From: Selaginella tamariscina
Taxonomy: Eukaryota; Streptophyta; Lycopodiopsida; Selaginellales; Selaginellaceae
Assembly (NCBI GenBank): GCA_003024785.1
Contig: PUQB01000026.1
Location: 793,531 to 857,530, forward strand
Direction: 5' to 3'
DNA: 64,000 bases
The translations under genes and the position numbers were made by a program. The notes under the pieces are model-generated. The model ran no database searches and was not told the DNA's origin. It was given only the letters and a program-made list of their open reading frames with translations. Position 1 is the first letter of the stretch. Every line of letters starts with the position of its first letter. Below, in pieces: positions 7,059-57,201 of this stretch.

Positions 7059-7191
7059 TTGGTGGAGGTGAGGGGCACCTCTAATTGTCCCTACGGAGTG
7101 CTCGGATTTGTGTCTTTTTTCTTGTCTTCTTAGGTCTAGCTTTTCCATTGTCTAGATCTATTCCTTTCTTGTGGATTTTGTCTCTTTCTTC

Positions 7192-8124
7192 ATGAATCCA
7201 CAACAGGCAAATCCCTTGTCTGTGGAGCAGTTACTCATGCAGTTGTTGGATGCCATGCGTGTGCAACTGAACAATCATTCTCAGTTGATGGCAGCATTCA
7301 CAGGCCAGGGTACTCCTCCTACTCATGTTGCAAACCCCCGTGTCCGACCGGATTTCTTTCGCGGAAATCCTGGAGATGATGTGTACCATTGGTTTGACCA
7401 CTTCACTGTGGTTCCACATATCATTCGTGGGACGGTGCTCAGTGTTTGCGCGAGTTTCCTACTTGTCTTCAAGGGACGGCGTTGCAGTGGTACAATGGTC
7501 TGGACGTTGCAACTCGTGGATTGGAATATTCTTCCAGAGATCTTCAAACGTGCATTTGGGCATGCGGACGACTGTGATGATGCTTTTCAGCAGTTGCATC
7601 GTATTCGTCAGGAGCCATCTGAGTCGGTGATGCAGTTTGGTGTTCGCTTTCGAAGCCTTTTGCTGCGTGCAGAACCTAACATGTCGGAACGCATCAAGTT
7701 AGGTATGTTGTGGCCAGCACTTCGTCAAGACCTTGTGGGGCTTGTGCATGCACTAGCTCCAGTGACTCTTGACGATGCTTTGAGGCTGGCACAACGATAT
7801 GAGTCGTCACCTCTCCCACTTGTGCCTTCACGTGCTCTTGTTCCACTCCATGTTGGGGATGGACCTGCTCCGATGGAGGTTGAGGCTGTTGCCGCTCGTG
7901 TACCAGCACAAGGTGGGGCCCGTGGACGAGGACGTGGACGTGCAGTTCGTTGTTGGGCATGTGATGAGGTTGGACACACGTATCGGCGCTGTCAACGGTT
8001 TCCCGATTGGCGTCCCCCATTTCCAGGATGGAGGCCATGGCGTCAACAACGTCCGGTTGGTGCTGCTGCAGTGGAAGGTTGTGATGCGGTGGATCTTCCG
8101 GGAAACGACGAATCGCACGAGTAG
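7192..8124 (+). CDS. gag: Gag polyprotein of the first gypsy element
   Basis: About 311 codons from ATG 7192 to TAG 8122-8124. The C-terminal part holds a zinc knuckle of the form C-x2-C-x4-H-x4-C at about 7950-7995, preceded by an Arg/Gly-rich stretch (GARGRGRGRA), as is usual for nucleocapsid. The central part has the retroviral-type gag core pattern ending in DDALRLAQRYE. Between about 7420 and 7540 the better gag match lies in another frame, so two compensating one-base differences are likely inside the open frame. Confidence 0.85.
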   Translation: MNPQQANPLSVEQLLMQLLDAMRVQLNNHSQLMAAFTGQGTPPTHVANPRVRPDFFRGNPGDDVYHWFDHFTVVPHIIRGTVLSVCASFLLVFKGRRCSGTMVWTLQLVDWNILPEIFKRAFGHADDCDDAFQQLHRIRQEPSESVMQFGVRFRSLLLRAEPNMSERIKLGMLWPALRQDLVGLVHALAPVTLDDALRLAQRYESSPLPLVPSRALVPLHVGDGPAPMEVEAVAARVPAQGGARGRGRGRAVRCWACDEVGHTYRRCQRFPDWRPPFPGWRPWRQQRPVGAAAVEGCDAVDLPGNDESHE

Positions 8125-8150
8125 AGGAGGGTCCTCGTGCGAATAAATTA

Positions 8151-11100: not shown

Positions 11101-11554
11101 GGAGTTGGGTTTGCCTCTCGGTTACCGCGAGCTGCTGATGCTAGGTCGTGGGATCGGTATCTGACGCATTCTTCCATTGGTTCGTGCGGAGTCAGCAGAA
11201 CACTTGGGCCGCGTACAAGTAGGACAACAACAACGCTACACAACCTCGCATCATCGTCCTCCTGCGGAGTACAAGGTTGATGAACTGGTGTTGGTTCGTT
11301 TTCCCAAGCTTACGGTACGTGGTTTAGCTAAGAGTCTCCTTCCTCAGTGGAAAGGACCGTATCGAGTGCTACGGCAAGTAGGGCCACAGGTTTATGAGGT
11401 TCGGCACGACATTCAACCCGATCCTCCGGAGATTGTACATGTACAACGGTTGAAGCATTTTGTGCAACGGGAACAAGTTGTGCCGCCTACAGATCCACCA
11501 GTGCCTCCTCCTGATGTTCCTCCAGATCCGGGCCCGTCTACAAGAGAACCCTAA
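8151..11554 (+). pseudogene. pol: Pol region of the first gypsy element, interrupted
   Basis: Read in several frames. Protease: VDTGSS near 8275 and LGMDWL near 8490. Reverse transcriptase: the LDLASGYWQ motif near 9095, then a frame change near 9180, then MPFGLSNAPATFQ (9188) and the catalytic FIDDV (9277). RNase H: about 9660-9960 (VDASDIGLGG), broken by further shifts. Integrase: His-Cys zinc finger (GHMGHRR ... CVWC) about 10455-10560, catalytic-core motifs FDLMGPF and DNGPAF, and YHPQTDGLVER near 10910. An in-frame TGA follows at about 10973. The C-terminal domain (PQWKGPYRVL, 11345) continues in another frame to 11554. I see no chromodomain. At least five frame breaks mean it is not functional as assembled. 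Confidence 0.9.
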
Positions 11555-14832: not shown

Positions 14833-14926
14833 GTTTGATAGTAACTGCTTCATAACTCTCCGTTTTCCAGCTACTTTTTTTCCTTGATTCCTTTCCTTCG
14901 TTTCCTCCTTTTTTCTTTCATAGATT

Positions 14927-15900
14927 ATGGCTAATTTTGAGCACTTTCAATGCGAGCACCAAATGTTGCTTCATGAGCTGGCCACTTTGCACCAAGTGGT
15001 CACCGATCTGCAAGGTTCCACCAATGCAGCATGTGCAGCTGCGGATGCATTCTCCAAGGCTGCTGCGCAGGCTCTCTCTCAGGCATCGGTGGTTCCCTCT
15101 TCATCGAATTTTTCTTCGGAGCCGAAGGTTAGCATGCCAGAGAAGTTCAGTGGTAATCGTGCCGATTTCTAAGGTTTCCTGAATCAGATCTGACTCTTGA
15201 TCCGCATGCAACCCGCCGCTACTCGACTGATGCTCAAAAGGTGGGTCTTTGGCATCCTTACTAAGTGGATCTCCACGGGCCTGGGTTGCTCCCTTGCTGG
15301 AGCGTGACGACCCATTGATGGAAGACTTTGAAGGTTTCGTGGCTACTTTTGAAGCCTGTTTTGGAGATCCTGATAAGTACCGTTCTGCATGCACAAAGTT
15401 ACGGAAGCTCACTCAAGGATCCGACCAGCTTCCGTCTATGCATCCGAATTTCAGCAACTTTGCATGAACATTCCATGGGACGAGACTGCATTGATCGAAC
15501 ACTTCTGTTTTGGGTTGAGGGATGACGTGAAGGACCTTCTCCTTACGTTACCGGATGCCCAAACATTAGCGGAGATCATGCAATAAGCTGTTCGTTGAGA
15601 CAACCATTTGTTCGAGCATCGTCAGGAAAGATCCCGTCAACAGTTCTTGCAAACCAATCCTGCAGCTGTGGTACATGTTCCTGCACCACCTTCTGGAGTA
15701 GTTCCTATGGAGGTTGAGAAATCCAAGCGTGGCTCTCTTTCCGCTGCTGAGAAGCAACGTCGCCGCAGCGAGAACCTGTGCTTGTATTGTGGTGGAGCAG
15801 GACACAAGGTGGCAGATTGTCCTATTAAAGCCAGGAACTTCAAGACGCGTGAAGTTGAAGCTGAAGTTCAGTCGGAAAACTCCAATGTCCACTTCATCTA
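14927..15900 (+). pseudogene. gag: Gag of the chromovirus, frame-broken
   Basis: An ATG at 14927 opens an Ala/Ser-rich N-terminus that leads to VSMPEKFSGNRADF, a common gypsy gag start of the core. A TAA ends that frame at about 15170. Core pieces continue in other frames (FEACFGDPDKY near 15350, FCFGLRDDVKDLL near 15505), and the zinc knuckle CLYCGGAGHKVADC lies at about 15780-15822. Stops and shifts near 15175, 15460 and 15585 break the frame. Confidence 0.8.
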
Positions 15901-15912
15901 GGAGCCGCGAAG

Positions 15913-18900
15913 TTGGATGTAGGTGCAGGCTCCATTGGTGCTGCTCATACCATCCCATCATTTAAGTTTCTTGTACACATTCATCTTAATAATCGAGAGC
16001 TCAAGGAGTTTGCCTTGTTAGACACTGGTGCAAATGCATGCTTCATGGATGACACTTTTGCAACTCAACATGGCATTTTGGTGGTGAAGTTGAAGTGTGC
16101 AGTTCCTGTAGAGGTGGCCGATGGGCGTTTAATTGCTTCTGGCGCGGTTACCCATGCTACCAAACCTCTCTCCTGCAGTTATGGCACATTCAACTGTTCA
16201 ATTTCCTTCAACTTGATCAAGACTCGGTCGACTCCCATCATTTTGGGCATGCCATGGTTTGTTGTTGCAAATCCGCAAGTCGATTGGAAGTTTAGGACGC
16301 TCACGTTTTCCTCTTCGATAGCTAGGATCAATCCTATACCTTCCTGTGTGCAGGATACATCCTTAGTATCTGAGGCAGTACAAGCTACAGGATTGACCGT
16401 GCATGTTCCTGTACCAGTGTTGAAGACTCCTCCTCGATAGGATTCACCTCATGTCAGTTCCTCAGCACATCCGCAGGCTCTCTCCACTCCTGTAAGTTTG
16501 TGGTTTCCTGTACAGGGTTCTTCTAATCCTATATCAGTTCCTCCTCAACAGGATCCACCTCCTGTTGATTCGTCAGCACATTCGCAGGTTTTTCCCACTC
16601 CTGCACAACCATTCAAACCCCATGGACTACAGGACATTTTGAGTACACGTAATGCCTTTTGGCCTTATCAATGCCCCAGCATGTTCCAACACATGGTGAA
16701 CGACATCTTTCGCAACTTCTTGGACCAGTTTGTGGTGATTACCTCAACGACATTTTGATTTTCTCCAGACCAGGCGGCACATGACAAGCATGTACGACTA
16801 GTTCTAGAGCGGCTTCGCGAGCATGGCCTATACGCGAAGTTGGAGAAGTGTTTTTTCGATAGGGATTCGGTGGAGTTCTTGGGCTACATCGTCTCTCTGT
16901 TGGTGTTTCCATGGACATGCACAAGGTGAAGACCATCGTGGAGTGGGAGAGGCCCAAGTCGTACAAAGATGTACAATGTTTTCTTAGCTTTGCAAACTTC
17001 TACAGGTAGTTCATATAGGACTTCTCCAAGCGTGTACTTCCACTCACGGAACTCACCAAGCGCACAGGGCTTTTCTCTTGGTCCGACAAGGCGGAACACG
17101 CGTTCACAACACTCAAGGACGCCTTCACGACAGCTCCAATTTTAGCACATCCTGACTCTTCTCATCCTTTCTTCATTAAAGCAGATGCCTCGAATTTTGC
17201 AATAGGATCCGTCCTATCACAAGTTGAAGAAGACAAGTTGCTTCATCTTGTAACTTTCACTCTCGTAAGTTCCTGTCAGCCGAGATTAATTACGAGATTC
17301 ATGACAAGGAACTCAAGCCATTATGGATTCATTCGAGGAGTGGCAGCATTTCCTAGAAGGTGCTGCACATCCTGTACAAGTTCTTACGGATCACAAGAAC
17401 TTGGAGTACTTTCAAACGGCTCGATTCTCAGTCAGTGACAGGCTAGGGGGCGGAGTTCCTATCACGTTTTGACTTCGTCATCGTTTACATGCCCGGTTTT
17501 CGGATGGCAAGGCGAACGCATTGTCTAGGCGCTCTTACCTTGCACCAAGCCCGGGCGATCCTGCATTTGACTGTCAAAGGCAAGTGTTGTTGGGTCCTGA
17601 TCGATTCCGGCTTGCGGCATTGCAAGTTCATCAGGCTCCAGCAAATTCAACACTCCTACAGGACGTCCGTTCGCAGTTGGCTACAGACGACTTGGCAAAG
17701 AATGTGTTCTCACACATTCATCCTGACGTTGCAAGTTCCTCTTCCTCCAATTCCCGTTCAGACTACAAGCTGTTCACCATACAGGATGGACTCCTATACC
17801 GGGAAGGTCTCCTGTACGTTCCTGTTGGTATTTCCAGGACTCGTGTGGTACAGGATTGTCATGATACCCCGGCTACAGGACATTTTGGTGTGGCCAAGAC
17901 AGTGGAGTTGGTGACTCGCAACTATTGGTGGCCTGGGTTGCGAGGTTTTGTGGAGAGGTTTGTACGGAGTTGTGACACTTGTAACAGGTCGAAGATGCAC
18001 CCTCTTGTCTTCTCCGTCCTCTTCCTGTTCCTTCTGCTCCTTGGAGATCCATTTCTATGGATTTCCTCACAGATCTTCCTCCTTCTTATGGATTCGATGC
18101 AATTCTTGTGGTGGTTGATCGTTTCACTAAGCAGGCTCATTTCCTACCCTACAACAAGACAGCTACAGGTCAGATAACTGCTGAGTTGGTGATCCGTGAG
18201 GTGTTCCGACATCATGGTCTTCTTGAGAGCATTGTTTCCGATCGAGGTCCACAATTGATGTCCAAGTTTTGGCAAGAGCTTCTTCGAGTCTACAAGTTAA
18301 AGCGGATCTTTCTTCAGGATATCATCCGCAAACCGATGGTAGTCCGAACACACAATTCAGACATTGGAACAGTATCTTCATTGCTTCATCAGTTACCAGC
18401 AGGACAACTGGTGGACCTTCTTCCAATGGCGGAGTTTGCCTACAACAACTTCATTCACGCATCTACAGGACAGACACCTTTTTTTGCTCTTACAGGCCAT
18501 CATCCACGTTTTGACTTTGCTCCTCCCGCTTCTCCTTCTTCCGCTCCTGCAGTACAGGATCGTCTCCAGCATCTTCGCCAGGTACAGGAGGATCTCCAGG
18601 TTCATCTTCAGCAGGCACAGGAACGATACAAGCATCATGCTGATGCTCACCGTCAGCCAGCACCTGCATACCAGATTGTGATCTCGTGTGGCTTCTTCGT
18701 CGACACATTCGCACAATAGGCCTTCTTCTAAGTTGGATTTTCAACGATTGGGCCTTACAGGATCATGGCGGAGGTAAATCCTGTAGCTTTCCGACTCGAG
18801 TTACCATCCACGGTGAACTTCATCCTGTGTTTCACACCTCCTTGTTGGAGCCGTATCATCCTTCTTCTCTTCCTGGTCGTGTTTCTTTCTCCCCCTCCTG

Positions 18901-19122
18901 TGGTCATTGACACTGAACTTGAGTACAAAGTTGCAGCTATCCTTGATTCTCGTCTTCATCACCGCCAACTCCAATACTTGGTGGATTGGAAAGGGTATTT
19001 GCCTACTGATCGCACTTGGGAACCTGCATCCAACTTACTCCATGCTTCTCTCCAAGGTTGCTGCCTTCCATCGGCATTATCCTGCTAAACCAGGTCCCAA
19101 GACTCGTGGAACTCATTTTTAG
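15913..19122 (+). pseudogene. pol: Pol of the chromovirus, with RT deletion and frame breaks
   Basis: Protease: LLDTGANACF at about 16015 and ILGMPW at about 16240. The region 16440-16620 is low-complexity Pro/Gln coding, followed at once by the middle of the RT palm (PSMFQHMVNDIF, 16676), so the RT fingers and the first catalytic Asp appear to be missing. The tail of the RT active-site region is near 16745 in a shifted frame. RNase H: about 17090-17240 (ADASNFAIGSVLSQ). Integrase: His-Cys finger with GHFGVAKT and CDTCNRSK (17880-17995) and core motifs VVDRFTKQAHF and SDRGPQLMS (18110-18260). Chromodomain: YLVDWKGYLPTDRTWEP at 18970-19025. Confidence 0.88.
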
Positions 19123-25964: not shown

Positions 25965-28830
25965 CATATTTTGACATAAATATTCACTAATTAATAAATG
26001 TAGATATTTATATTATATTTCTTGTACTAATTATTAATCTTAATTAGTTTAAACTTGTTAATATACTTAAAAGATTATAATATATTTATTAAGGAATCTC
26101 AAATTTTAATTTAAACTTAAGGTTTAATCTTAGTTTCATTTAGAATCCATGAATATCTTGTTGAAGATGAATCTGAGCCATTATTCAAAATCATATAGTA
26201 TATTCTTTATTTTACTATATTCTCACGGTGTTCTAAAACACTTCTAGTGTGAAACAATAAGTTGTTAAAGTTACAAAGAAATCCCGTGCATGGCTGTAAT
26301 TATATTTAATAAAGCTATATGTCTTATGAATATATTTTAATTAGATGGCTTAGATCATATAAAAATTTTAAAAATCTTAATAATATTTTATGGATGTGTT
26401 AAAAGCTCCACGTTTTACACGTAGTTTAGATTAATATGTAATATTAAAGATGCATATTTATATATTATGCTTTAAAATCAAATTAATATTAGTATGTCAG
26501 ATGATTGCTATTTATTAAATATAATATAAACATAGGGTATTTAAAAACACATATGAATAGTGAAACATAACCTAATTCTAATTTAATATAAACACAATAC
26601 ATTTAAATATATTAAGAATCTACACATTAAATTGCAAGACCTTCTAATTTAGAAATTTTTAATTTAAATCTAAATTATTTAATTATGACTACTAAACCCT
26701 CTTAATTTAAACATAGTATATTGCTAAGATATTTTAAAATTTTGTGTTATGATTATTATTGTTTAAAAAGAGTTTAAAATTAAAACAAAGTTAATAATTA
26801 TATTAAAGTTGAAGTTCTATTTAACGCATTCAACACTTAATATTATTATTAAAAGTTTTACATCTCTTACACATCAAATAAATATATAGTAAGTAGTTTA
26901 AAATTAAAAAGAGATTGTGTATTTCGATTTATATGTTTTAAAACTAATATCATATTAATTAATATTTATGCATGCACATTACACATCCTGTACACTTTCA
27001 AATAGTATATTAGCATATTACAAATTAATTAGTTTACTGATTTTTAAAGTTATAAATTTTTAGTGGATTTAAACATAAATCAAAAGTTATTAAAATTTAC
27101 AAAGTTAAATTTTAAATTTTAAATTAAATTAATAAAATTTTATTAATGATAAATCTTAAAATTACAATTAAAATAAGTAAAGAATATGTGGATTCTCTAG
27201 GAATATTTATTTTTAGACATTATAAAATCGTTAACCTAAATTGAACGATTCAAACGCTACCCTTTAACGGACGGCTACGATCGCTTTCCCTGGAAAGAGA
27301 CTTAAATTGTTGAAGAGCCCTTAATCCTAAATCAGGGTAGGGTTTCTTTGCGGATTGATCTGGGAGCGAAGGTGTGTTTTGTGTGTGTGTGTGTGTGTGT
27401 GTGTGTAATTAGCAATTCGTCTTTTAATATATATATTGAGAGAGAGGGGGAATATATAGGAGAAGTTAATAAATGACGAACTGCACAGGGATATGGAGGG
27501 AGAAGAAAAGAAACACCTCTTTTAGTGGAGCTCTTGTACAAGTTGAGCTCCTACATTGAGCTCGGTCCTAGGCCACCGCGCTGAAAAGGTTACTCTCTCA
27601 ATAATCGTAATAATAATAATAATAACCGATGTTTTTTTCTTTCAGTCATTTAGTAGCGGCCTTGCTTGAGAAGGTGTCCACAATCGAAGGCTTGTAAGTT
27701 TCATGCTCGTTGTGTGTCTGTGTGCGTGTGTGTGTGACCATGTTTTTTTTTCAGTAAGAAAGAGCTTGAGGAGGCCAGAAGGCTCAATCTTGAACGCGCC
27801 TTTTTTGAGGTTGTTGCACGCAACCTTATGTATGATTCTGTTGTAGGCCCAATGTTCCGAGAGTTGCGGACTGGAGAAGACATGTATCTCTCTCTCTCTC
27901 ATCTCTCTCTCTCTCTCACTCTCTCTCTCTCTCTCACTCACTCACTCTCTCTCTCTCTCTCACTCTCTCTCGCTTTAATGTTGTTGTCGTTCAGGGAGGC
28001 TGCATACAAGGAGGCCAGTGAGAAGGGCTATGTGATCCCTTTATTGAGATGGTTATTCGTTACATCGAGGTGCCAGATGGAGGCCCCTTTGAGAACATGT
28101 TATTTTTCCATCATGAAGAGTATCCTGACTTCACTAAGATTCCAAAGCCAGGGGTACGTGTGTGTGTGTGAAAGTAACGTCTTGCAAGACGGGCACATTC
28201 ATATGTATGTGTGTGTACACACTCACACACATATATAAAATGGTTTTATTTTGCAGTTGTACCCATATACGGTATTCCTCCTGATGTGTGTATGCACATC
28301 ATAGAGCTTCATTCGAAATGCAAGAAGAGGAGCAGATATCTGAAGCCTGACGAGTGGATATTCCCAGAATTACTAAAGATTGAGCGTCCGCTTAAGCCCT
28401 TCGACGCTGATAAAGCCTTCGAAGCTTTAATAAACGACATCCTGTATCGACCATTTAATACAAAGTTAACTATTATTAAGCTGAAAAATACACGATTTAT
28501 TTATTATCATATTTGCACCATTCGAATATCTATGCGTATACTATATATACCTTATATATATACCACATAGAGAGATAAAGTTTTACTGTATATCTCGCAC
28601 TCATATTGTATATTAATTTTTTAAACAATCATTGCGTTACATGGATTTTATATTAATTACTCCAACAAACATACGTATATACTCTATTTTAAATTAAATA
28701 ATAAATATTATTACTACAAATTTATTATATATAAGTTTTAATTTATACTACGACTACTATTAAATTAATTATTATATTAATACTAACTATATATGGATAT
28801 TGTTTAGTAAAAATTATTATTGATGCTGAC
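25965..28830. repeat. Right arm of the ~2.9-kb inverted duplication
   Basis: Reverse complement of 3530-6504, with the hypothetical gene now on the plus strand. The outer similarity fades near 28820-28835 (TTATTGATGCTG against 3541). The non-genic part, 25965-27300, is AT-rich with no coding sequence. Confidence 0.85.
27493..28458 (+). pseudogene. Hypothetical protein, copy B of the inverted pair
   Basis: Same five-exon plan as copy A, with ATG at 27493-27495 and the equivalent stop at 28456-28458. Exon 3 is intact here (the two bases lost from copy A are present near 27845). Relative to copy A it lacks single bases in exon 1 (in the GAAGAAGAAG run, and the TGG before the donor, giving TGA), exon 4 (GTGGATCC reads GTGATCC near 28033), the exon 4 donor region and exon 5 (CGGACATC reads CGACATC near 28436). 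Several of these are losses from GG runs, so sequence error is a real alternative to true decay. The function is unknown. Confidence 0.6.
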
Positions 28831-45049: not shown

Positions 45050-46467
45050 CCAAGGTTTTACTTATCTATAGATAAATAAATATTATTATTGTATTAATAT
45101 ATATGTTTGTACAAGCATATTAATATTATATATGTTATATATTATGTATATCTATTTATACACATAAAACAGAAATGTTATTTGAAAATTTTACAAAAAA
45201 GTTTTAAATTTACAAATATACATCCCCACTTTAAAAGTTATTTAAAATAAAAAATCACTAAAGATTTCTCACATAGTTTCTAGTTCAGAGTATTAGACTC
45301 CAAACATGACCCATTAAATATATATGTTACAATATAATATAGTATAGCATTTATTTATTTTCTTATTCATAATATTTACTTAATTATCTTTCACTTTAAA
45401 GTTGCCTTCAATTAAATATATGTATATTTAATTATTAAAATTTTATAACTGAAATATTACTAGGTTTTAAATTGAAGTTTCATGGAGTAATATTTACCAT
45501 AAATAAAACTATAAGGAAAAAGAAATGTAGCTCATTTAATTTAATAAAAGATAACAAAAAATAATCATTTTTTAACCTTCGTAAAGGTCGTATTGTCTTA
45601 TACTATATCTATGCACAAAGTATCATATTAGTCGATTAACCTAGGTACCCTTTAAATCTTTTTATATTTTACATATGTACATTTAAAACTTTACGCATTT
45701 GAAAATAAAAAGTTAAATAATGTTTTTAAAAAAATCAATAGAAATTTTTAATTAATTTGTATTTTATTATATTTAGCTCCAAACATATATATTGCAATAT
45801 AATATAATTATTTTAATTGCTGTTTATCTTTAACATTTAAAATAAATTTTATATTATTTCAGTTTAAATATGTCTTTAAGGGTAAACTAAAATTTAAATT
45901 TAAAAAAATATATATATCTAAATATACAAATTCTGGAATATATATGTAAATATAATAAATTTCAAGATTATAAAAGTCTTATAAGAAATTCAATGGGCAA
46001 CATTGTTTTTATAATATACAGGATTACATTACATTATTTTGGGTGTCATATATGAACATTATAACTATGTGAAAATGGGAATATAAAAAATTTTTTTAAT
46101 TAATATTTATGTATTAATTATTAATATTTTAAACATACATTTTAAAGAATTTTTTTAAAACATATATTATTTTAAAAATATTTCTTTAAAATACTAATTA
46201 AATAATTATAACTATTAATTATTAAGAAAAAAGACTATTGACATTTATATTTAGTTACAACGTTCATATGTGGTAAATTATCATTATTTTTATAATATAC
46301 AGTATTATATCTATTTCACTTGATTAAGTGATGTAACTTGATATTCAAGGATCTTACAATGTAATTATTTAAAACTATGAGAAATAATGTAAATAATAAA
46401 AATAAGATTAATTATTATTAAACGATTTAAACATATATATAAAAGCCCAAGCTTATACATCATCCAG
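45050..46467. repeat. Second copy of segmental duplicate 1
   Basis: Direct copy of 38480-40075. Its right end forms the 3' flank of the secreted-protein gene. No other coding sequence is seen. Confidence 0.75.
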
Positions 46468-46863
46468 CACACGGGGGTAAGAGGCTGCTAACACAAGGCA
46501 GTAACTGGTTAGCCAACAAGTTAAGGCCCTGCACATCAACGGGAGAAGCATTTCCCAATAAGAAATTAATGAAGAAATTAAGCAGCTCTCCTGTGAGTGT
46601 TTGAATGGGAACTCCAGTAATTAGCGAGTTAATTATGGGGATTAAGAAATTTGTTGTAGTTTCATCAGTGCCACCGGCAGCCAATAGGATCTGCTGCACT
46701 CTCTCTAATACTTTTGTACATGCTGAAAAATAATTAAATAAATTAAATATACGTGAAAAAAATTAAATAAATTATATATTTGAATTTACCTTGAGCATTG
46801 CAGGGAAGGATGTAAGGGAAGATGAAACACAGTAAGCAAAAGGAGATGAAGAAGACGAGCCAT
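46460..46863 (-). CDS. Small predicted secreted protein, two exons
   Basis: Exon 2 (about 46460-46724) is open and encodes a hydrophobic ~85-residue domain that starts at ACTKVLERVQQ, ends at LLPPCAG with a TAG, and has three Cys (one early, two near the end). Exon 1 (about 46791-46863) encodes a strongly hydrophobic leader with ATG at 46861-46863. The acceptor TTTTTCAG is at about 46725-46732 and the donor AAG|GTAAAT at about 46790. The leader frame from that ATG and the exon 2 frame differ by one base, so there is a small indel or an upstream start. I do not recognise the family. The transposon end lies about 12 bp upstream of the ATG. Confidence 0.5.
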
Positions 46864-46874
46864 TGATATATATA

Positions 46875-46940
46875 TAGAGTGTCGCCATTTTGGAGGCTTG
46901 GGGCCCAGGAGGCCTGGGCTCGAATATTCAAGAATATTCT
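46875..46940 (+). repeat. Left terminal inverted repeat of the MULE
   Basis: GAGTGTCGCCATTTTGGAGG followed by a GGCCCAGGAGGCC block. It pairs imperfectly with the reverse complement of 55130-55196 (GGGTCTCGGCGAAAAGGAGG). It begins directly after a (TA)n run. Confidence 0.6.
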
Positions 46941-46959
46941 AGAATATTTTGGAATATTC
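46922..46959. promoter_or_regulatory. Heat-shock-element-like GAA/TTC array, left end
   Basis: Eight consecutive trinucleotides alternate GAA and TTC with exactly two bases between each (46922, 46927, 46932, 46937, 46942, 46947, 46952, 46957). Only the sixth, TTT, departs from the pattern. This is the heat-shock-factor consensus nGAAnnTTCn repeated four times. Confidence 0.6.
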
Positions 46960-46973
46960 TTTCTGGTCGGCAG

Positions 46974-46991
46974 TATTGGCCTCAGTCGGCA
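46974..46991. repeat. GTCGGCA words, left subterminal
   Basis: GGTCGGCAG at about 46974 and CAGTCGGCA at 46983-46991. They share the core of the arms in the internal 137-bp array. Confidence 0.75.
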
Positions 46992-47072
46992 AAAAAGAAT
47001 TCTATTAAAACTGTTGTATTTCTTTTTAATTTTTTTTTATATTAGCTTAATTTATTACTCAATATACATTAG

Positions 47073-50000
47073 CTAAAGTTTCTTCTTCATCTTAAGTAAA
47101 GCTGCAGTTCTCGAACCACCAGTTACGCTTGGACGTGGAGGTGTTTGAGTAGGTAACTCTTCTGGTCTAATGTTCTCTGCAAGCTTGTTTGTTGCCAACC
47201 TAGAGAGTTCGAAACTCTTCTCGGTTCCTATAATATTCCTTCCGAGCTCGACGGCAGCTAACAATGATGACCCGGTTCCGGAACCAATATCCCAGACTAG
47301 GTCGCCAGGTCTACTGAGACGCTCGATCAAAAGCTGCATGAGTCGAACACTCTTCGGTTGAATCATAATCCTGCACAATCTTCCATTAGGATAAACATAG
47401 CAAAGCACTTCCTTACCAAGCCTCCTGATAACGGTCGGCAGTGTCGACGAGGATCGTGTTCGTCAACGCCAGAGGGTTTGGCCTCTTCGACTTCTTCTCA
47501 GAGCTTTGCAGCACCAAGAGAACTAACAAGTTATCCTGCCACATAGACCAAGTTAAACTTGAACTTGAATAGCTAGCTTACCTTAATTTTGTCACGGTAT
47601 CCCCAGCCTCGTGCACGGTAGACGCTGTAAGTCCCTGCAACCTCCAAGTTGATTACTGCAGCCGCCTGAATCACCGCCGAAACAGAAGGAGAACTCGCGA
47701 AGACGACCATGAAACCACTCGCTGCCAAGTGCATTCCACTGAACTGCAAGGCCTCCTCAAACTTCACCGGATCTAGCTGCACAATGTCCTTGTTGATGCT
47801 AGCACCTCCATATACAAGCTCATTGGGCAAGTCGAGGATGATGAGGTTGAAGCCGTATTCACCTACCACTTCCTGGAACAACGTTTGTGACTCAACCGTA
47901 TGTAGTCTGTCAACCTGTTCTCGGAGCTTGGTGTACACCTCTGTCTGGGAAGCACCTGGCTCGAAGAAAGACCTGCTCATCTCCTCCATGTCGCACACAG
48001 CTAGGTCGTAGGATCCACGGGATGCAGCCAGGGTCGGGATGAAGGTCATCAGGTCGTCCTTGATGTCCAAACTAGCTACAAGTGGCTGTACCTCATTGAT
48101 TGTAAAGTCGAATGCCGGCGGAGGTGCTGTAGAAGAGCTTGGTCCCGCTCCCGATCCCTTTGCAGGTGTAGTTGTCTTCCGCACCGTCTTCTTCATCTTG
48201 CTCTTCTTGATAGCCTCTACTTCTTCTGGCCCCCAAAATCGCTGGTAGATCATTGGCGTGCATGTCGAATAGTGTGCTCTCCCAAGCTGGTGGCTGTTGC
48301 GACGGACAGTCGAGCCAGAATGGAACATGCTCCCGTTCGAACGGTGTTAGAGCTCCTCTGCTCTTCGACCACATGTGAGGCTCGCTTGTATGATCTGTCC
48401 ACAGCTTCATCGTATGGGACGGTGTCATTTGCTTCGCCAGTATGAACCTGCAACACAAAGTCAGACAGTAGCAATGCTGGATTGAAAGCTTACCTCCATA
48501 TCATCCGACGCGCAGATTCCTCACGCTCCAGAAACTCATTCGGCTCCATCGAATAAGTGAACCGTATGCAGTCATGGAAGGGCTGAAAGACCAGGCACTT
48601 GCTCCGAATTCTCATCTCGTCAAACCAGCTCATGAAGTCGACATCCGTTCCAACTTCTTCACCATCCTCTCGCAACCCCTTAAGGATCTGAATGGCTTCC
48701 TCGCGCACAGCCTTCCAATATAAGTCCAAGGTGAACCACTTGATCCACTCTTTGTCCTGCATGCCCGGTAGCCCAAGTGTCTGTTGTTCTGCCTTGGATT
48801 CGAGACGGGTGAGCTTGTTGAGGTATCGGAGTCGCAGCATGTTTGGAATCTTCGCCCTTGACATCGCATACAGCTTCTCAATGCCCATCCAGCGACACTG
48901 CTTATGAGAGATGTTTGTCACCTTCTGGAACCACTCCTCCCCCAAGTCTGGGTCTATGATGGAGAGGAACTTGTGCATACGCTTGTCATGCTTCTTGTAT
49001 ACTAGCTGCTTCAGGTTCACCTCAACCTGTGGATTGCCCTTAGCACTGGTGACTGCTCTGTCGAGATCATCGTCGATCTCGTTCTGCACATAGAACAAGT
49101 TAAAAATTTCTTTCCTATAAATTAAATCGGAGGTTACCTTGAAAAGTATCTTTGCGCAGATCAGGTTCGGAAGAGGATGCCAAGCCGTCTTTCCTGATGA
49201 ACTCTCCTTCCACTTCCGCACCTCAAGACGATCAACCTCCGTGAGTGACTCGAGGATTTTCTGAGTTCCTTCTGTACTAGTGCAGACCGCCTTTACAGCG
49301 AGGAGAATATGTGGTAGCGTTGTTTCCACAGATGTTGCTGAAGATCTGTTCAACGAAACTGTAAGTCTAAACTCTTAACAAAAAGAAAAGAAAATACTCA
49401 CATGTTAATCGATTGGAACATCGAAACCATTGAAGAATGTCGAGGTTCTCCGTGGAGATGAAACTCGATCGAACGCGAATAGCCCATCGCTGGTTGTCCT
49501 CTGCATCCTCTCGGTACAGCTTCTGCAAAGCCTGTAGCCTATGGTTCCCGTCCCAGCAGCTAAACTTCCTGTTTGAGAGCCTTGAAGCCCACTGTTTGTA
49601 CTCCGGCTGAGTAAGAGCTTGCTCGAAAGACCGGTGCTGCTCGTACTGAATCGTGTCCTTCGACAGCTCCGATAGCTCCTCAGCAGTGAGTCGATCTCCG
49701 ATGGACAGAATGAACAGGCCGTGTTGCGTAGATAACCAGCCTTCTTCAACGATGACACCAGCCTGTCCAAGTCCCCTGGGTTCACTCGTCGAACCACCTC
49801 GTTGGAATGTATTCTGCAGATGGGCACATCAGGAGGATCACCAAGTCCCTTGATAGTAATTTTGTCGAGCAGGTTTGCTGAGCTCTCCAAATGCAGGCTC
49901 GCCGGTATGCTGTATAACTCCTTCGGCTCCTTATCGCTCTTCGCCTTCTTGCCTTTTGAATCAGCTTTCCCGCGGCCTCTCTTTTTGCTGACTGCCTCCT

Positions 50001-50304
50001 CCAAGTCGTCCTCGCTAGCTTCAGCTGCCTCTGTCATCTGCACTTGCTCGTTCAGGACTGCAACCTCAGCGGATGAAGGAGGCAACTGCGACGAGCTCTC
50101 CGGGAAATCTGTGATTGTTGGTGGAGGCTGTTCTTGCTCAACTGCTACTACTCCAGACTGAGTCACTGGAGGATCCTCCTTTGTACATTAGATGGTTCTC
50201 CTCTCTTGCCTCGCTTCTGCTTCGATATCCTCTTCTCTTCCCGTGGCTCTTCATCAGGCGCAGTCTCTAGTAGACGTTTTGAAGCTCTCACCATTTTGGG
50301 AACT
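47073..50304 (-). CDS. ParB-like domain fused to an N4/N6-type DNA methyltransferase
   Basis: Six exons: 49402-50304 (ATG 50292-50294), 49138-49358, 48494-49083, 47582-48447, 47417-47535 and 47073-47370 (TAG 47073-47075), about 1000 codons. The N-terminus is Lys/Glu-rich with a KKRGRGK nuclear-localisation-like run. A ParB/sulfiredoxin-type domain follows, with the opening pattern GDLDRLVSSLKKAG and the signature CWDGNHRLQALQ (49536-49565). A long helical middle comes next. The C-terminal part has the motif order of beta-class methyltransferases (Pfam N6_N4_Mtase): a motif IV equivalent IILDLPNEL (about 47816-47842), then KSVRLMQLLIERL and motif I DIGSGTGSS with LGRNIIGTE (47230-47310). The catalytic DPPY-type tetrad is DLPN here, so activity is uncertain. 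One-base frame breaks occur near 50185, 49750, 49460 and 48265. ParB-methylase fusions are known in phages and bacteria, so the ancestry may be prokaryotic (inference). Confidence 0.75.
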
Positions 50305-50370
50305 CTGGAAAGTAAACACACAAGTCAATTGATGAGGAGTCAAAATAAAAAAACAAACAAAGATGACTAA

Positions 50371-51340
50371 CCTTGTGGCTGCCGACTCAAGCTAGATGCT
50401 GCCGACCCTCTCAGTCGGCAGAGAGATGTAGAAGAAAAAACCTGCCGACTGAGATAGTTTGTGCCGACTCTGTCAGACGGCACAGAAGAGATAATGGTGC
50501 CGACTGAGATAGGATGGTGCCGTCCCTCTCAGACGGCACAAATGGGAAGACCCATTAACTGTTTTAAAAGAAATACTTGAGACGCAAAGAAAAAAAAAAC
50601 TAATTCAAAATACCTTGTGGCTGCCGACTGAAGAAGGATGGTGCCGTCACTCTCAGTCGGCACAAATGGGAAGACACTATAACTCTGAAAAAAAACATTG
50701 TTATACGGATACTTGAGCCGCAGAGCAAAATATAAACAAATTCAAAATACCTTGTGGCTGCCGACTGAAGAAGGATGGTGCCGTCACTCTCAGTCGGCAC
50801 AAATGAGAAGACACATTAACTCTGAAAAAAAACAATGTGATACGAATACATGATCCAGAAAGCAAAAAATAAATATATCGAACATACCTTGTGGCTGCCG
50901 ACTGAACTAGGATGGTGCCGTCACTCTCAGTCGGCACAAATGGGAAGACCCATTAACTCTGAAAAAAAAACCTTGTGATACGAATACTTGAGCCAGAAAG
51001 CAAAAAAAAACAAATCGAAAATACCTTGTTTTTGCCGACTGAACCAGGATGGTGCCGTCACTCTCAGTCGGCACAAATGGAAAGACCCATTAACTCTGAA
51101 AAAAAACATTGTGACACGTATACTTGAGCCGCAAGGAAAAAAATAAATAAATCGACGATACCTTGTGTTTGCCGACTGAACCAGGATGGTGCCGTTGCTC
51201 TCAGTCAAATAAGAAGACCCTATATCTCTGGAAAAAGAAATACTTTGAGCAGCAAATCATAAAATACAGAAATTACACATACCTTGTGGCCGCGGCTGAG
51301 CAGGATGGTGCCGAGAATCTAAATCGGCACAGAAATCTCC
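50371..51340 (-). repeat. 137-bp tandem array of exon-like modules with hairpins
   Basis: Units start (CCTTGTG on the plus strand) at 50613, 50750, 50887, 51024 and 51161, exactly 137 bp apart, with diverged edge units at 50371 and 51282. On the minus strand units 1-4 have a pyrimidine tract plus CAG acceptor, a 71-nt core (50614-50684, 50751-50821, 50888-50958, 51025-51095), and an ACAAG|GTAT donor. Each core contains TGCCGACTGA and TCAGTCGGCA, a perfect 10-bp inverted repeat about 20 nt apart. The coding exon of the ParB-methyltransferase gene begins with the same CAG|AGTT junction (50304). The array therefore looks like amplified leader exons of that gene. Confidence 0.8.
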
Positions 51341-51825
51341 ATTGTATACTTGGGCGCTGCACGAATCGAGTCGAAATGGATGGCGCCGCAGTGGAAACCG
51401 TAACTCTGAGATCTGAGATTAAGAAACCCTCTGGATCTACCGCAGTGGAAACAGATCTGAGATTGAAAGAACCCTAGCCGCAATGGAAACAGTAAACCCT
51501 ATCTACCAAAAAACCCTAGCCGCAATGAAAACAGTGAACCCTACGGAATAAATGTGACATTAATATTTAGGGTTTATTTTAAAATATGTGAATAATTGGT
51601 AAATGTGAAGATATTTCAAATCATAAAAGGTAGAAATTAAATTAAATCGGTGATACTAGAGAGGACATCATTAAGAACACTGTGAACTGGGCAGCATAGA
51701 ATTAATTATATACAAACGTGTATTCACGTTTATTGTTAACGATTGTAATTTTTTTTTGGTAAAGAAAGTGTGTTTAATCTTTTGCTTTGCTTTCCTAAAC
51801 CACCGAGCTTTCTCCTTGCGTTGTC
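51341..51825. promoter_or_regulatory. Divergent promoter region of the transposon
   Basis: The segment between the leader array and the transposase ATG. 51425-51545 repeats the phrase AACCCTAGCCGCAATG with variants, giving four or more telobox-like AACCCTA words. 51560-51800 is AT-rich and contains the transposase 5' UTR. No coding sequence is seen. Confidence 0.5.
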
Positions 51826-54800
51826 ATGGCCAGAGTTACCTATGAAGGCATTGACAAAGATTTCCCAGTCGATGAAGATGGAAATGCTTTTGTGTTTGAA
51901 CATGATCTTCACATTGCTTTCAACATTCCTTGTTGGTTCAGTATACATGTGGTTCAATTGATGTCAGTTTCTGCGAGTTCTGGAGAAGATGTGGAGTTGT
52001 TACCAGAAGGCAATGCATCAAACCAGTTTGTCTTTTACACATTGTGCCCGGCAAAGGGCCCGTTGTTCAGGTTGCGGACAGAGGAGCGTGAGGAATCCAT
52101 GCTGGTGTGTCTTCTAAGAGCAGACAAATGTAGGATAGGGAAGGATCTCATTGGTTCGTCTGAAGTTAAACGAGTCTCTGAACTACCGCAGATATACAAT
52201 GGAAATGTCATTTTCGAACTTCCCCCTAAGACAGAAAGCACAGAGAAGTACTCGGGGATGAATCGCAAGGATGGCTGCTACCATTGGACACACCCGAGCA
52301 CAACACACTGGCATGTTCCGGCGCGAGTCAGTCGAAGTTCATGTGTCGGACATCTCCAATGCATCAATCCTACTGCCCCTACTTGGCTTTTGAGAAGAAA
52401 GCAAATGAATGTCACTTCAAGGGTGCTGTGGAGAAGGCAAAGACAACTGAGACAGGCAAAGTAATAGGCATAAAATGTAAGCATTGTGGAGAGGAGCCAT
52501 TGCTGGTGCACACTTGTCCGGCTTATGTGTACTACATTCTGCCAGACGACATTTCTTTTACAAGGTTGTTCATTCACAGAGGTGTTCATCAGCATCCAGT
52601 CAGCCCCTCAGTGTCAGCTTCAAACGTTCAGCGAGCCAGATCTAGTGTCAGCAACGTGGTAAAGAGCAGTCCGCGAACCAATCAACGAGTGATTGAGTTT
52701 CAAGCCGCGCGTGAGCTCATCTTTGAAGAACTTTTCAAGGAAGAAGGAGAAGTCTCGTACACTGGTTTACTCTCAAAACTTGAACCTCTAACAAACCATC
52801 GAAGGTATTTTTTTTAGATCTCTACACACTGACGTGACCTTTTCTTTAGGACTCGGGACTGGATTACACAATCAAGACAGAAGGAGACACACTTTAGAGA
52901 GGGTTACGAGGGTCTTCTGGAGCTGAAGACAAAGCTGCCAATACCTTTCATTCACGTCATACATGTTCCAGGGATGGAACTGCATGGTGCTGAGGAGCAG
53001 CCTCTGATCTTCAAAATGACAGTTGAGGGACCGGGTTCAGGAGTTGAGTACATCAGAAGGTGTCAAAGTGGAGGAGACCTTCATGATCAATGGGTTGTTC
53101 TGGACCACACGCACCGCATACCAGACTGGGCGACAATTGGAATACACCTTTATGACCCATTGTAAGTTGTAAAACTCTTCATAACACTTTCTAATCTTCG
53201 TTATCTAACGCTCTCTTGCAGTGTCAGATCCATGGTGACTATAGCTTACGCAGATATGTGCCGCGAAGATAATGTTGCAGTGCTGAAGTTCTTGAACACA
53301 ATGCTAGAGGTTTGTAAGAAGCAGGGTTTGGAGAATGTCAACTTTGCTGGTTTCATGTCGGATGAGGCTGGAGCGATATGGATAGCCTTGCGCCAAGTAT
53401 TCAACAACGGAGCAAAGATGAAAGGGAGGGAAAGAAGCTGTCTGTTTCACTTTATGCAATCCGTGCGTCAGGTGACAAAGAAATGGATCGCAGAAGAACA
53501 TCGCGAAGAACACATGAAGCTTGCTCGTGCCTGGCCTGCAGCACTGAATGAACAATCTAAGAAAGAACAACTGGCAATTCTCGAGTCTTTTGGGAAGGAC
53601 GAGCGTCAAACATTCGAGCTTTGAAGACATGGCTGTCTTGGTGGATCAGGCATGAGGACCACATCTCCATGGCGGAACTGGGAGACATGACAGAAGAAGG
53701 ACTCGCGAGCGTTCCAACTACAAACAATGCTGAAGTGATTCACGCTAGAGCAAGAAGAGCAAGATTGGCCAAAAGAGTACCACTGCTGGAGGCGACAATG
53801 TTAGACCTCACCGATGCAGTTATGCAGAGTGCGAAGGTGAAAGCGGCAATAGAAGGGAGGTATACAGGGTCAGGGCCTTCGAAGGAAACTCTGTTGAAAC
53901 GAGTGCAACGCAAACTCTCTGAGGGGAAAAGTGTATCTCCATCAACAATTATTAATCTGGTGGAAGGCGAGGAACACTTGACCAGCCCGGAGTTCACGAG
54001 TACCACTAACGTTCGAGTGCAAACTGTTAGGAGAACAGTCACAGGAACAGAACAGTCTGATGCTCGACGTTCACACAGACATGATGTAGAGTACACAGAG
54101 CGGGTGGTCCAAAACAACAGGAGAAAGAGGTTAAGGTTCGAAGAGGTTTCGGAGAGAGAGATTGCTCAAACAGAGTGGGCCATCAGACGAATCGGAGCAT
54201 CCAGTAAGGTTAAGTGTTTGGGGATGAATCAGGAAGGAACTGCTCTGTGTGGAAAACCAATCGGTTATCCAAGCAGAGTGCCAGCACCAGGATTCTATGG
54301 AAAACGAATGTACATTGATGCCTTGGGGAATGAGGAGTATGTACAACAGATGATGTGGTTCTGCCCAAAAGATTCAGGGTGTTTCACGCGGCCAAACGGC
54401 AAAATTCTTCGGTCACGTATTCCAACACCACCAACGGTTTGGCCTGTGCTCAAGGAAACGAAGCTGACAAGTGAGGAGGTCAGAGAACTACAGGATGCAG
54501 GCTTTGTTCTGGAAGGTTTACAGGGGATGGCAGGAAGAGTAGATGAGGGTCAGAAGGACAAAACACCATCGCCACCACGTGGAGCTGGATCTACAACAAT
54601 TCCACCTTTCGAAGGACGTATGGTTCGGACTCCAACAAAAATGTCTAAGGAACAAGAGAAGAATTTCCGCAAGGCCAAGACGTTTTTAGGTTGTGTGCGA
54701 AATGTTGAAGTGACAGCTAGAGGACGGAAGGAGGCTTTCGTTGTGTCGGCAGGAAATGACTCTGCAAAGGTGACTATTAATACTTATCCTTCATGCAGTT

Positions 54801-54988
54801 GTTCTACATTTCAGAAGAGCAAAAGTTGGAGCCCATGTGTACACATGTACTTCGTCTATAGCCGTGTGCTTGGCTTGAACCCGGAAGTCACATATTTTCT
54901 ACAAAGGCGATCGCTCAGTGACATGGAGGTCCACCGTTTGCTGGTGAATTGCAACAGAGTTCATGACCCACCGGTGCTACAAGGATAA
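51826..54988 (+). CDS. MULE-type DDE transposase with SWIM zinc finger
   Basis: Three exons: 51826-52804, 52850-53161 and 53222-54988 (TAA 54986-54988), about 1019 codons, with ATG at 51826. The N-terminal ~200 residues are unrecognised. A zinc-binding domain follows (CKHCGEEPLLVHTC ... IHRGVHQHPV, 52470-52600), resembling the WRKY/FLYWCH-like fingers of MULEs. Catalytic residues are seen as D in VVLDHTHR (53103-53105), D in FMSDEAGA (53361-53363), the LFHFMQ motif (53440s) and E in TNNAEVIHA (53732-53734). A four-Cys cluster lies at 54210-54380. The SWIM finger C-x-C-x11-C-x-H is at 54794-54844. Frames change by one base near 52320 and 53610. All catalytic positions survive, and the last 455 codons are uninterrupted. 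Confidence 0.85.
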
Positions 54989-55021
54989 ATGGTTTAGGGT
55001 TTAGGATAATGTCTTATTAAG

Positions 55022-55064
55022 CCAGTGGATATATTAAGCCAGTCGGCGTATATTAAACCAGTCG
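55022..55064. repeat. GTCGGCR words, right subterminal
   Basis: CCAGTCGGCG and CCAGTCGGCA, about 23 bp apart, in the same orientation on the plus strand as the left-end words. Confidence 0.7.
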
Positions 55065-55084
55065 GCATATTAAAAAAACTTATA

Positions 55085-55165
55085 TATTCTAGAATATTCT
55101 TGAGAATATGCTAGAATATGCTAGAATAACCCTAGAATATCCGCGAATATACTAGAATAATATGA
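55085..55165. promoter_or_regulatory. GAA/TTC-rich block, right end
   Basis: TTCTAGAATATTC (55087-55099) is a perfect three-unit heat-shock-element pattern. It is followed by several copies of CTAGAATAT at irregular spacing. It is weaker than the left array. Confidence 0.45.
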
Positions 55166-55196
55166 AGCCTCCTGAGCCGGAGCCTCCTTTTCGCCG
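55130..55196 (-). repeat. Right terminal inverted repeat of the MULE
   Basis: On the plus strand GAAGCCTCCTGAGCCGGAGC then CTCCTTTTCGCCGAGACC before an (AT)n run. It is the imperfect partner of the left end. Confidence 0.6.
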
Positions 55197-57201
55197 AGAC
55201 CCATATATATATATAACTTAGATATGTATGAAGTCGTTATTTATACTGAAATATGCAGTCTTAATCACGTATTATAATCTTATTACGTTACACACACGCA
55301 CACACACATGTATGTCAGGTCAGATTAATAAAGATATGATTCGATTCGTTTAGTTTGGTAAGCTAAGTAAAACAAGTAGAAACTACTGCAGAAAATGATG
55401 CCAATATTTTGAATATTATACATCAAGAATATATATAATTTATTTTATTTACTTTATATAGTTTACAATAATAAACATATTATATTAATAACAGATTAAT
55501 TTAAGCTTACATTAGATGCAGACTATACTCAAGGTATATATGCGTACGCATTGAAAAAATACAGGTATGTATGTGAAGTTACCTTTTAATACAAATTGAA
55601 AACATTAATTTTTTAATTAATTTTTTATATTAAAATCGAAAATGTCAAACTCTTTAATTGTCACGTTACTAAGACTTGACTGTCTTAAACAGTAAGCAAG
55701 GACAACTCATATATCTCTTGTACTGCAATTTCCTAATATCAAACACACGCACACACACGTGTGTGTGTTTGTGGGTGTGTGTATAAATAATAGGAACAGC
55801 TCCCTTTGTATTAGCAGTAATTAATTAAATTTAATTAATTAATAAATATTAAAAAACTAAAGGAAAGAACGTATTTAAAAAAAAATTATATATACTAAAT
55901 CATATTTACAAATGAAATGATTTATATCCTTTAAATTTAAAAATAATTAACTTAATTAACTGTGTCTCTGGATTGTGAAAACTAACCTAAATAATATATA
56001 TTATAATTCCTTTTCTCAAATCTTTATTTATGGCCTTTCTCTAGTAATTAAAAAAATAATTAAAGGTAAAATAATTGATTTATGTTACTAATAATAAAAT
56101 TATACACCCCTGTTTAACCTAAATTCAATTAAATTCTTTAATTATATAATAGTATATTCTATATATTTATACTTTAAATAATAATATAAGAAATCTTAAA
56201 TTTATAGACATATATATAATATATAAACATAACTATTCAATCAAATGAAAATTTAATATGGGTCTATCGAAAGTTTTATTATTTAGTATGAGTGAAATTA
56301 TAATTAAGTTATATGGTATTATAATGATAAATTGTTATAAAGCTTATACCAATATAGGTTGATGTTTATTTAAATCTCCTACAAAAAAATATTATCAATA
56401 TGTTCTAATTTTATAGTTATATATAGTGCATAATTTAATTTTACATATTATTTTAAATACATGATATATATTACATTATATTAATTAATTTAGAAAATAT
56501 AAATTTAAATATTTTATTTTAATTTTAAAAACAGCCCGAATACATATATTTCGCTGTTGATTTAAAATATTAAAATTTATAAACTTGTGTTCTAAATTCA
56601 AAATTAATAATATATAATAAATTCTATTTTCTGTTACTTTTAACCTAATTTTTCTTTAACAATATTATATTATAAACCACAAGTCATATTTAAACTGCAG
56701 AATATAATTTTAAATACACACACACAACGTGGACAGTCCTTTGAGTGATAGGCATCACACACACACACACACACATATAAATTTATAAACCTTATAAAAA
56801 GATTATCTTAAATCTACGTGAAGTATTTCGATAGTTAAATGGAATTGTACCATAATATTATTTATCCAAAAAACAAATAAATGATTAGCATATACCATAT
56901 ACAATGGAAAATAAAATTTTATTGTTATTTATCAAATGATTTGTTGGACATTGTTGTTTCATGCACACATCAAACTTTCAAACACATAGAACAGAATATG
57001 CACACGCATAATCCATTATAATACATTTATCTGAGGACATGTATATATCTCTGTTTTTGCTCACACACACACATATACACTGCTAATGCCCTATGGGGTA
57101 TGTGGAGAATGGGCAAAGCTAATTGATATTTTATAAGATCATATGTAGAGAATATTACCATAGCATTTCGTAATTAATAGTGTTTGATTTCTTCCAGTTT
57201 A
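55197..57201. other. AT-rich spacer with segmental duplicate copies
   Basis: 55620-55750 matches 40165-40280 inverted, and 56060-57240 matches 40430-41440 directly. (CA)n and (GT)n tracts lie at 55293-55310, 55742-55785 and 56755-56775. No gene is supported. Confidence 0.6.

What the first reader, a model, noticed from the sequence alone, without database searches (positions are those of the whole stretch)
46875..55196. MULE transposon that also carries a ParB-methyltransferase fusion
Seen: one element with imperfect inverted ends holds a DDE/SWIM transposase and, divergently, a ~1000-codon protein with a ParB-like signature (CWDGNHRL) and a beta-class methyltransferase motif order. Known: ParB-methylase fusions occur in phages and bacteria, while plant MULEs usually encode a transposase, sometimes with captured host genes. 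Inferred: the transposon took up a prokaryote-type DNA-binding and modification module that may mark, protect or help move its own DNA. I do not know of a described plant MULE lineage with this pair.
Basis: partly seen in the sequence, partly recalled or inferred. Interest (0 to 1): 0.93.

Follow-up and report, generated by a model that had tools for sequence, protein, structure and literature searches.

The report
Plant jumping gene with methylase-like partner
A recently active plant transposon carries, next to its transposase, a second conserved gene that looks like a bacterial DNA-binding and DNA-methylating protein, plus arrays of one nine-letter DNA word, which makes it a good system for asking how jumping genes mark or protect their own DNA.

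Summary
Window 46877-55202 is one transposon (8,326 bp), multi-copy in its 300.7-Mb plant assembly; three full-length copies align at 98-99% between the same ends, two with clear 9-bp target duplications. Twelve of 12 further transposase copies, chosen because the methyltransferase search had not listed them, carry the ParB-methyltransferase gene. A sister family (transposase 65.5%, ParB-MTase 56.1% aa identity) has the same divergent pair, and both genes show purifying selection. New here: the 9-mer CAGTCGGCA lies in inverted-repeat arrays between the genes in both families, with the 9-mer or its core near the ends, although the arrays are built differently; genome-wide 8,315 occurrences against 262 for the reversed control. 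Caveats: no PF10551 (MULE) profile hit; ParB only sub-threshold; motif IV is DLPN, not (D/N/S)PP(Y/F/W), so methylation is unproven. The window's frameshifts are absent from a sister copy and look like assembly indels. ParB-methylase genes on algal transposons are published, so this is a new variant: a Mutator-type land-plant lineage resembling Arabidopsis VANDAL/VANC in anatomy.

The parts
46877..55202 (.). complete Mutator-type element, family A (8,326 bp)
   Evidence: alignment limits of three full copies L047-L049 and their flanks
46868..46876 (.). left target-site duplication ATATATATA (within an AT repeat, so not decisive here)
   Evidence: sequence; 9-bp duplications clear in L047 and L048
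55203..55211 (.). right target-site duplication ATATATATA (within an AT repeat)
   Evidence: sequence;
46877..46962 (+). left terminal inverted repeat with period-10 GAATATTC repeats (also fit the heat-shock-element consensus)
   Evidence: of 40 left-end copies scored (511 candidates), 32 are 100% identical over 164 bp, the window among them
55084..55202 (-). right terminal inverted repeat with GAATATNC repeats
46966..46991 (+). left subterminal GTCGGCA / CAGTCGGCA, 19 bp apart
55040..55067 (+). right subterminal CAGTCGGC / CAGTCGGCA, 19 bp apart
47076..50294 (-). ParB-like/beta-class methyltransferase gene with introns; frameshifted in the window copy, open in copy L048
49403..49840 (-). ParB-like region; CWDGNHRL at 49535-49558
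   Evidence: motif by recall; PF18763 ddrB-ParB sub-threshold, E 0.031 on a shortened fragment and 0.095 on a 60-aa piece; CWDGNHRL kept in family B
47822..47833 (-). putative motif IV, DLPN (canonical would be DPPY-like)
   Evidence: sequence; DLPN in 33 of 34 loci with a readable site, both families
47253..47291 (-). motif I (SAM binding) DIGSGTG
   Evidence: PF01555 C-half; MboIIA alignment; conserved in family B
50337..51331 (.). tandem array (137-bp units) of CAGTCGGCA inverted repeats between the divergent genes; on the minus strand several units have acceptor-like and donor-like sites flanking a 71-nt exon-like block in the presumed leader of the ParB-MTase gene
51826..54988 (+). transposase gene (three exons); D 53103-53105, D 53361-53363, E 53732-53734 by conservation with family B
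54794..54850 (+). SWIM-like CxC...CxH
   Evidence: PF04434 E 0.0083, below cut-off; E 0.02 in family B

Best explanation
This is a recently active Mutator-type DNA transposon family with two divergently transcribed genes. One makes a DDE/SWIM transposase. The other makes a roughly 1,000-aa accessory protein with a ParB-like DNA-binding/NTPase region and a beta-class methyltransferase fold. Shown: one unit, multi-copy, 9-bp duplications, both genes kept together and under purifying selection across two families, and a 9-mer (CAGTCGGCA) in inverted-repeat arrays between the genes in both families, with the 9-mer or its core GTCGGCA near both ends. Inferred: the ParB-MTase protein recognises these arrays on its own family, as VANC proteins do in VANDAL elements, and sets their chromatin or base-modification state (self-marking or anti-silencing), keeping the divergent promoters usable and the ends accessible; the transposase uses the terminal GAATATTC-bearing inverted repeats. 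Whether the effect needs methyl transfer is open, because the catalytic motif is non-canonical.
For: Unity. Sister family with same layout. Selection: ParB-MTase identity by codon position 0.652/0.733/0.378, pN 0.294, pS 0.833 (saturated), 930 codons; transposase 0.738/0.811/0.401, pN 0.223, pS 0.791, 997 codons. Motif: 14 of 14 CAGTCGGCA and 21 of 21 GTCGGC in the 64-kb window lie in the element, 19 of the 21 outside coding exons (positions); shuffle mean 0.027 for the 9-mer in the element; genome-wide 8,315 against 262 reversed; paired inverted form 2,312 places against 0; of these only 50 places are listed, and all 50 carry the spacer of family A (21) or B (29) by my reading. Array architecture differs between families while the 9-mer is kept. 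VANC precedent: 9-mer targets, non-coding, tandem-repeat growth (PMC5735166, abstract and two results sections read).
Against: No experiment shows which protein binds CAGTCGGCA, and the share of the 8,315 genomic 9-mers that lies in elements was not counted. Motif IV is DLPN rather than DPPY. ParB is not significant in any profile search of the intact region. VANC21 motifs lie in the same orientation, here they are mostly inverted pairs. CpG observed/expected is not unusual: 0.73 in the element, 0.81 and 0.66 in two Gypsy elements of the window, 0.58 in family B, so there is no sequence trace of protection from 5mC.
Confidence: 0.5

Rival explanations
1. CAGTCGGCA is a transposase site (subterminal and promoter-proximal), and the ParB-MTase is a transposition helper or a methylation switch that times transposition, rather than an anti-silencing factor.
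For: The motif sits next to both ends as well as in the promoter region, as transposase sites of other elements do (recall).
Against: The extreme ends carry a different repeat, GAATATTC, in both families, the more natural transposase site; the densest CAGTCGGCA array lies in the presumed leader of the ParB-MTase gene.
Confidence: 0.25
2. The ParB-MTase is a conserved pseudo-enzyme: it keeps the SAM motif and fold but not methyl transfer, and acts as a sequence-specific binder or scaffold.
For: Motif IV DLPN is the same in both families while residues after it differ; profile matches cover only the C-terminal part, not motif IV.
Against: Motif I DIGSGTG is strongly conserved, and the tetrapeptide keeps its D and second P.
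Confidence: 0.3
3. The gene is a captured passenger (Pack-MULE type) with no role for the element.
For: Plant MULEs are known to capture genes (recall; Pack-MULEs are also mentioned in PMC12477816).
Against: Kept in 12 of 12 copies tested, in a sister family, and under purifying selection of the same order as the transposase.
Confidence: 0.04
4. The two genes belong to separately inserted elements lying side by side.
For: None found.
Against: Same spacing and same ends in copies on several contigs.
Confidence: 0.01

Closest known systems
Sola1-1_Ec32 of Ectocarpus (PMC12477816; section 5 and passages read)
   Same: Transposon with a 1,104-aa ParB-like + N4/N6-MTase protein encoded on the strand opposite the transposase; binding and modifying its own DNA was proposed there.
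   Different: Sola-1 superfamily, 21.5 kb, brown alga; here Mutator-type by 9-bp duplication and SWIM-like motif, 8.3 kb, land plant. Their sequence was not compared. Motif arrays are not mentioned in the section read.
Similar proteins on green and red algal transposons (Iyer 2011; Petroll 2025; known to me only as cited in PMC12477816)
   Same: Same domain pair on transposons, according to PMC12477816.
   Different: Neither work was read; which transposon superfamily carries them is not stated in the passages I saw.
VANDAL21/VANC21 of Arabidopsis (PMC5735166; abstract and sections 8 and 9 read)
   Same: Transposon with a second gene whose protein binds a TE-specific 9-mer in non-coding tandem repeats that expand and contract.
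   Different: VANC has DUF1985/DUF287 (figure legend), not MTase/ParB; its motif is YAGTATTAY in direct orientation; VANDALs are MULEs without terminal inverted repeats (recall).
Selaginella moellendorffii SELMODRAFT_402005 (P0001)
   Same: Homologue of the ParB-MTase protein: E 1.9e-69, 26% identity over 58% of the query by BLASTP, 39% over the aligned residues of A1.
   Different: Its gene model lacks the CWDGNHRL and motif IV regions; genomic context unknown.

Membership tests
Mutator (MULE) superfamily | 8-11 bp (typically 9) target-site duplication | tested here: met
   9 bp in L047, L048, L050, L051; L049 8-9; window uninformative
Mutator (MULE) superfamily | MULE-type DDE domain by profile (PF10551 or IS256 models) | tested here: inconclusive
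   No PF10551 hit; contig C571 not among 77 genome PF10551 matches; one IS256 NF033543 hit E 5.5e-6 on the read-through piece vanished with intact-copy sequence; hhalign against an alignment of four other MULE rows of this genome, one of them a chimera, not significant
Mutator (MULE) superfamily | SWIM zinc finger after the catalytic domain | tested here: inconclusive
   CxC...CxH present in both families; PF04434 sub-threshold
ParB-MTase transposon accessory proteins | ParB-like domain plus N6/N4 MTase in one protein on a DNA transposon | tested here: inconclusive
   MTase over cut-off, linkage to transposon met, ParB sub-threshold only
Beta-class N6/N4 DNA methyltransferase | motif IV before motif I | tested here: met
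   order DLPN then DIGSGTG in both families; motif IV itself is assigned by eye
Beta-class N6/N4 DNA methyltransferase | canonical (D/N/S)PP(Y/F/W) in motif IV | tested here: not met
   tetrapeptide DLPN in 33 of 34 readable loci
VANDAL/VANC | VANC-type protein (DUF1985/DUF287) | tested here: not met
   No such Pfam hit in the second protein: works like, not member
VANDAL/VANC | second protein binds the repeated motif and removes methylation | not testable with these tools
   needs binding assay and methylomes

The most novel reading that the evidence does not exclude
A land-plant Mutator lineage carries a prokaryote-type ParB-MTase that acts as its own sequence-specific epigenetic factor: it loads on inverted CAGTCGGCA arrays of family copies, spreads like ParB, and writes a non-5mC mark (or excludes host methylation), so that protein and arrays co-evolve as a self/non-self tag. 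The roughly 32-fold excess of this 9-mer in the genome would then be the footprint of a transposon-encoded epigenome.
Probability: 0.3. Interest if true: 0.9.

Novelty: new variant of a known kind. Interest (0 to 1): 0.74.

Why it matters
It puts a ParB-methylase-like transposon gene, so far known to me from algae, into a land plant and a Mutator-type element, shows by selection that the gene matters to the transposon, and supplies a concrete candidate target sequence. Whether eukaryotic transposons use 6mA/4mC-type enzymes to mark themselves can now be tested with one protein and one 9-mer. The near-identical copies suggest that the family moved recently.

Tried and rejected
Rejected: two separate insertions; passenger gene; decay as the reason for the frameshifts: in a four-copy alignment the window has 1 private substitution but 8 private indel columns (L048: 1 and 13; L049: 0 and 11; L047: 29 and 77), the pattern of assembly indels for the first three (inference). 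Rejected: my first reading of 47416 as a frameshift (an intron). Dropped: IS256 profile hit, not reproduced. Led nowhere: homologue search for the transposase and for alignment A1 (which did not return P0001 either); viral and prokaryote scans; phage search with the ParB region (none; the MTase part met 219 records, the 15 listed being annotated as methylases or without annotation); two single-sequence structure models, mean pLDDT 33.4 and 39.5, not interpreted; PDB profile searches for ParB and transposase (none). CpG depletion showed nothing special. Limits: the genome search scores only the best candidates (45 of 3,237; 64 of 2,999; 40 of 511), so copy numbers are lower bounds; that 22 of 40 left ends have a listed partner gene at the expected spacing reflects that limit.
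Full report
What is there. Window 46877-55202 is a single DNA transposon. Three full-length copies fetched from the same assembly (L047 on C942, L048 on C466, L049 on C1145) align to the window at 98-99% and stop at the same ends within a few bases. Their flanks carry 9-bp direct duplications in L047 and L048, 8-9 bp in L049; the window copy sits in an AT repeat. The ends begin GAGTGTCGCC and finish CGAGACCC and form an imperfect inverted repeat that includes a period-10 GAATATTC array. The assembly G000 has 300,702,823 bases in 1,391 contigs. A PORR domain next door (E 4.6e-24) makes it a plant; the size and contig number match what I recall for Selaginella tamariscina, and the one protein homologue found is from S. 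moellendorffii, but the species is not given by any search.

The two genes. On the plus strand lies a three-exon transposase (51826-54988). On the minus strand lies a multi-exon gene (47076-50294) whose product has a CWDGNHRL motif and, further on, an N6_N4_Mtase match over the curated cut-off (E 4.6e-9; 3.7e-9 from the intact copy). The best solved match of the C-terminal part is MboIIA (E 7.1e-5; 1.7e-4 with the profile). The window copy has frameshifts in both genes. Copy L048 reads through them in single exons. In a four-copy alignment the window has 1 private substitution and 8 private indel columns, so the frameshifts are probably assembly indels; L048 and L049 show the same excess (1 and 13, 0 and 11), while L047 has 29 and 77.

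One unit, kept together. The ParB-MTase search gave 103 matched pieces (45 of 3,237 candidates scored); the transposase search gave 101 (64 of 2,999). Among 41 and 49 rows taken from these lists, nine divergent gene pairs lie at 2.26-2.70 kb (the window: 2.56 kb). Ten of 10 left-end loci fetched, the best-matching ones, run on into it at 99.1-99.9%. Of 40 left ends scored (511 candidates), 32 are 100% identical over 164 bp, the window among them: a recent burst.

A sister family. Loci L050 and L051 hold a second family (B), with transposase 65.5% and ParB-MTase 56.1% identical to family A in protein. It has the same divergent order, 9-bp duplications, CAGTCGGCA or its core GTCGGCA near both ends, and GAATATTC repeats in both ends (read by eye). 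Codon-position identities of 0.652/0.733/0.378 for ParB-MTase (930 codons) and 0.738/0.811/0.401 for transposase (997 codons), with pN 0.294 and 0.223 against saturated pS 0.833 and 0.791, show purifying selection on both genes. The accessory gene therefore matters to the element.

The 9-mer. In the 64-kb window CAGTCGGCA occurs 14 times and GTCGGC 21 times, all inside the element; two of the 21 fall in coding exons. Shuffling gives a mean of 0.027 for the 9-mer in the element. It lies near both ends and in a tandem array (50337-51331) between the genes. On the minus strand four 137-bp units carry a pyrimidine-tract acceptor and a donor around a 71-nt block, and the outer units carry partial versions, so the array seems to be a series of duplicated leader exons of the ParB-MTase gene (inferred, no transcripts seen). 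In family B the array is instead made of palindromes such as CCCAGTCGGCATGCCGACTGGG in about 40-bp units. Genome-wide the 9-mer occurs 8,315 times against 262 for the reversed sequence; the paired inverted form gives 2,312 places against 0, and the 50 places listed all carry a family A (21) or B (29) spacer. How many of the 8,315 lie in elements was not counted. The number of exact 9-mers differs among near-identical copies: 14 in L047, 17 in L048, 17 in L049, 14 in the window.

What weakens the simple reading. No profile search found ParB in the intact region; only a shortened fragment and a 60-aa piece gave sub-threshold ddrB-ParB matches (E 0.031 and 0.095). Motif IV is DLPN in 33 of 34 loci with a readable site, the other being L047; most of these are near-identical copies and two copies are counted twice (L029/L048, L034/L049), so this is two families, and loci without the surrounding pattern were not counted. 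Active enzymes of this class have (D/N/S)PP(Y/F/W) (recall). MULE membership rests on the 9-bp duplications, the DDE-like and SWIM-like positions and the ends, not on a profile: PF10551 never matched, and an IS256 match disappeared with intact sequence.

How it most likely works. The extreme ends carry one repeat (GAATATTC), the subterminal and promoter regions another (CAGTCGGCA). The economical inference is that the transposase reads the first and the ParB-MTase the second. That is like the layout of Arabidopsis VANDAL21, whose VANC21 protein binds a 9-mer in non-coding tandem repeats, and VANC induces loss of DNA methylation (PMC5735166, abstract and two results sections read). I therefore favour a self-marking or anti-silencing role, by methyl transfer or by binding alone.

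Prior work. [quoted passage not shown] Eight paper searches bear on such genes. Only PMC12477816 among their listings was seen to describe one; I saw listings, some of them cut, and opened no other paper from these eight searches. Subscription papers and Repbase are outside that library. No search was made for the 9-mer in print. The finding is a new variant of a known kind, with a conserved target-like motif as its main new content.

Noticed in passing
46877-47073 and 54989-55205: The end regions hold 4 overlapping three-unit heat-shock-element consensus sites (412 nt; 0 of 2,000 shuffles reach 3), and family B ends have the same GAATATTC repeats. The family may be heat-inducible, or this is the transposase site.
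   Followed up: partly
46463-46863 (-): The element sits 13 bp upstream of the ATG of a predicted small secreted-type protein (by eye) with no Pfam match at E 0.1.
   Followed up: partly
50337-51331 (-): The tandem units look like repeated 71-nt leader exons with splice-like borders; the four folded form stable hairpins in RNA (-19.9 to -24.9 kcal/mol), and by eye some units hold a short upstream ORF.
   Followed up: partly
7156-11551 and 14924-19085: Two Gypsy-type elements whose gag-pol reading frames are split by frame changes (gag, protease and RT matches for the first): compatible with indel errors in the assembly.
   Followed up: no
L001-L008: An unrelated MULE family with 16 matches of identical score to PF10551 in the same genome, without CAGTCGGCA or GTCGGC in the eight 3.3-kb loci examined.
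   Followed up: no
3874-4555 (-) and 27738-28567 (+): A stretch of the window is duplicated in inverted orientation (near-identical predicted exons).
   Followed up: no
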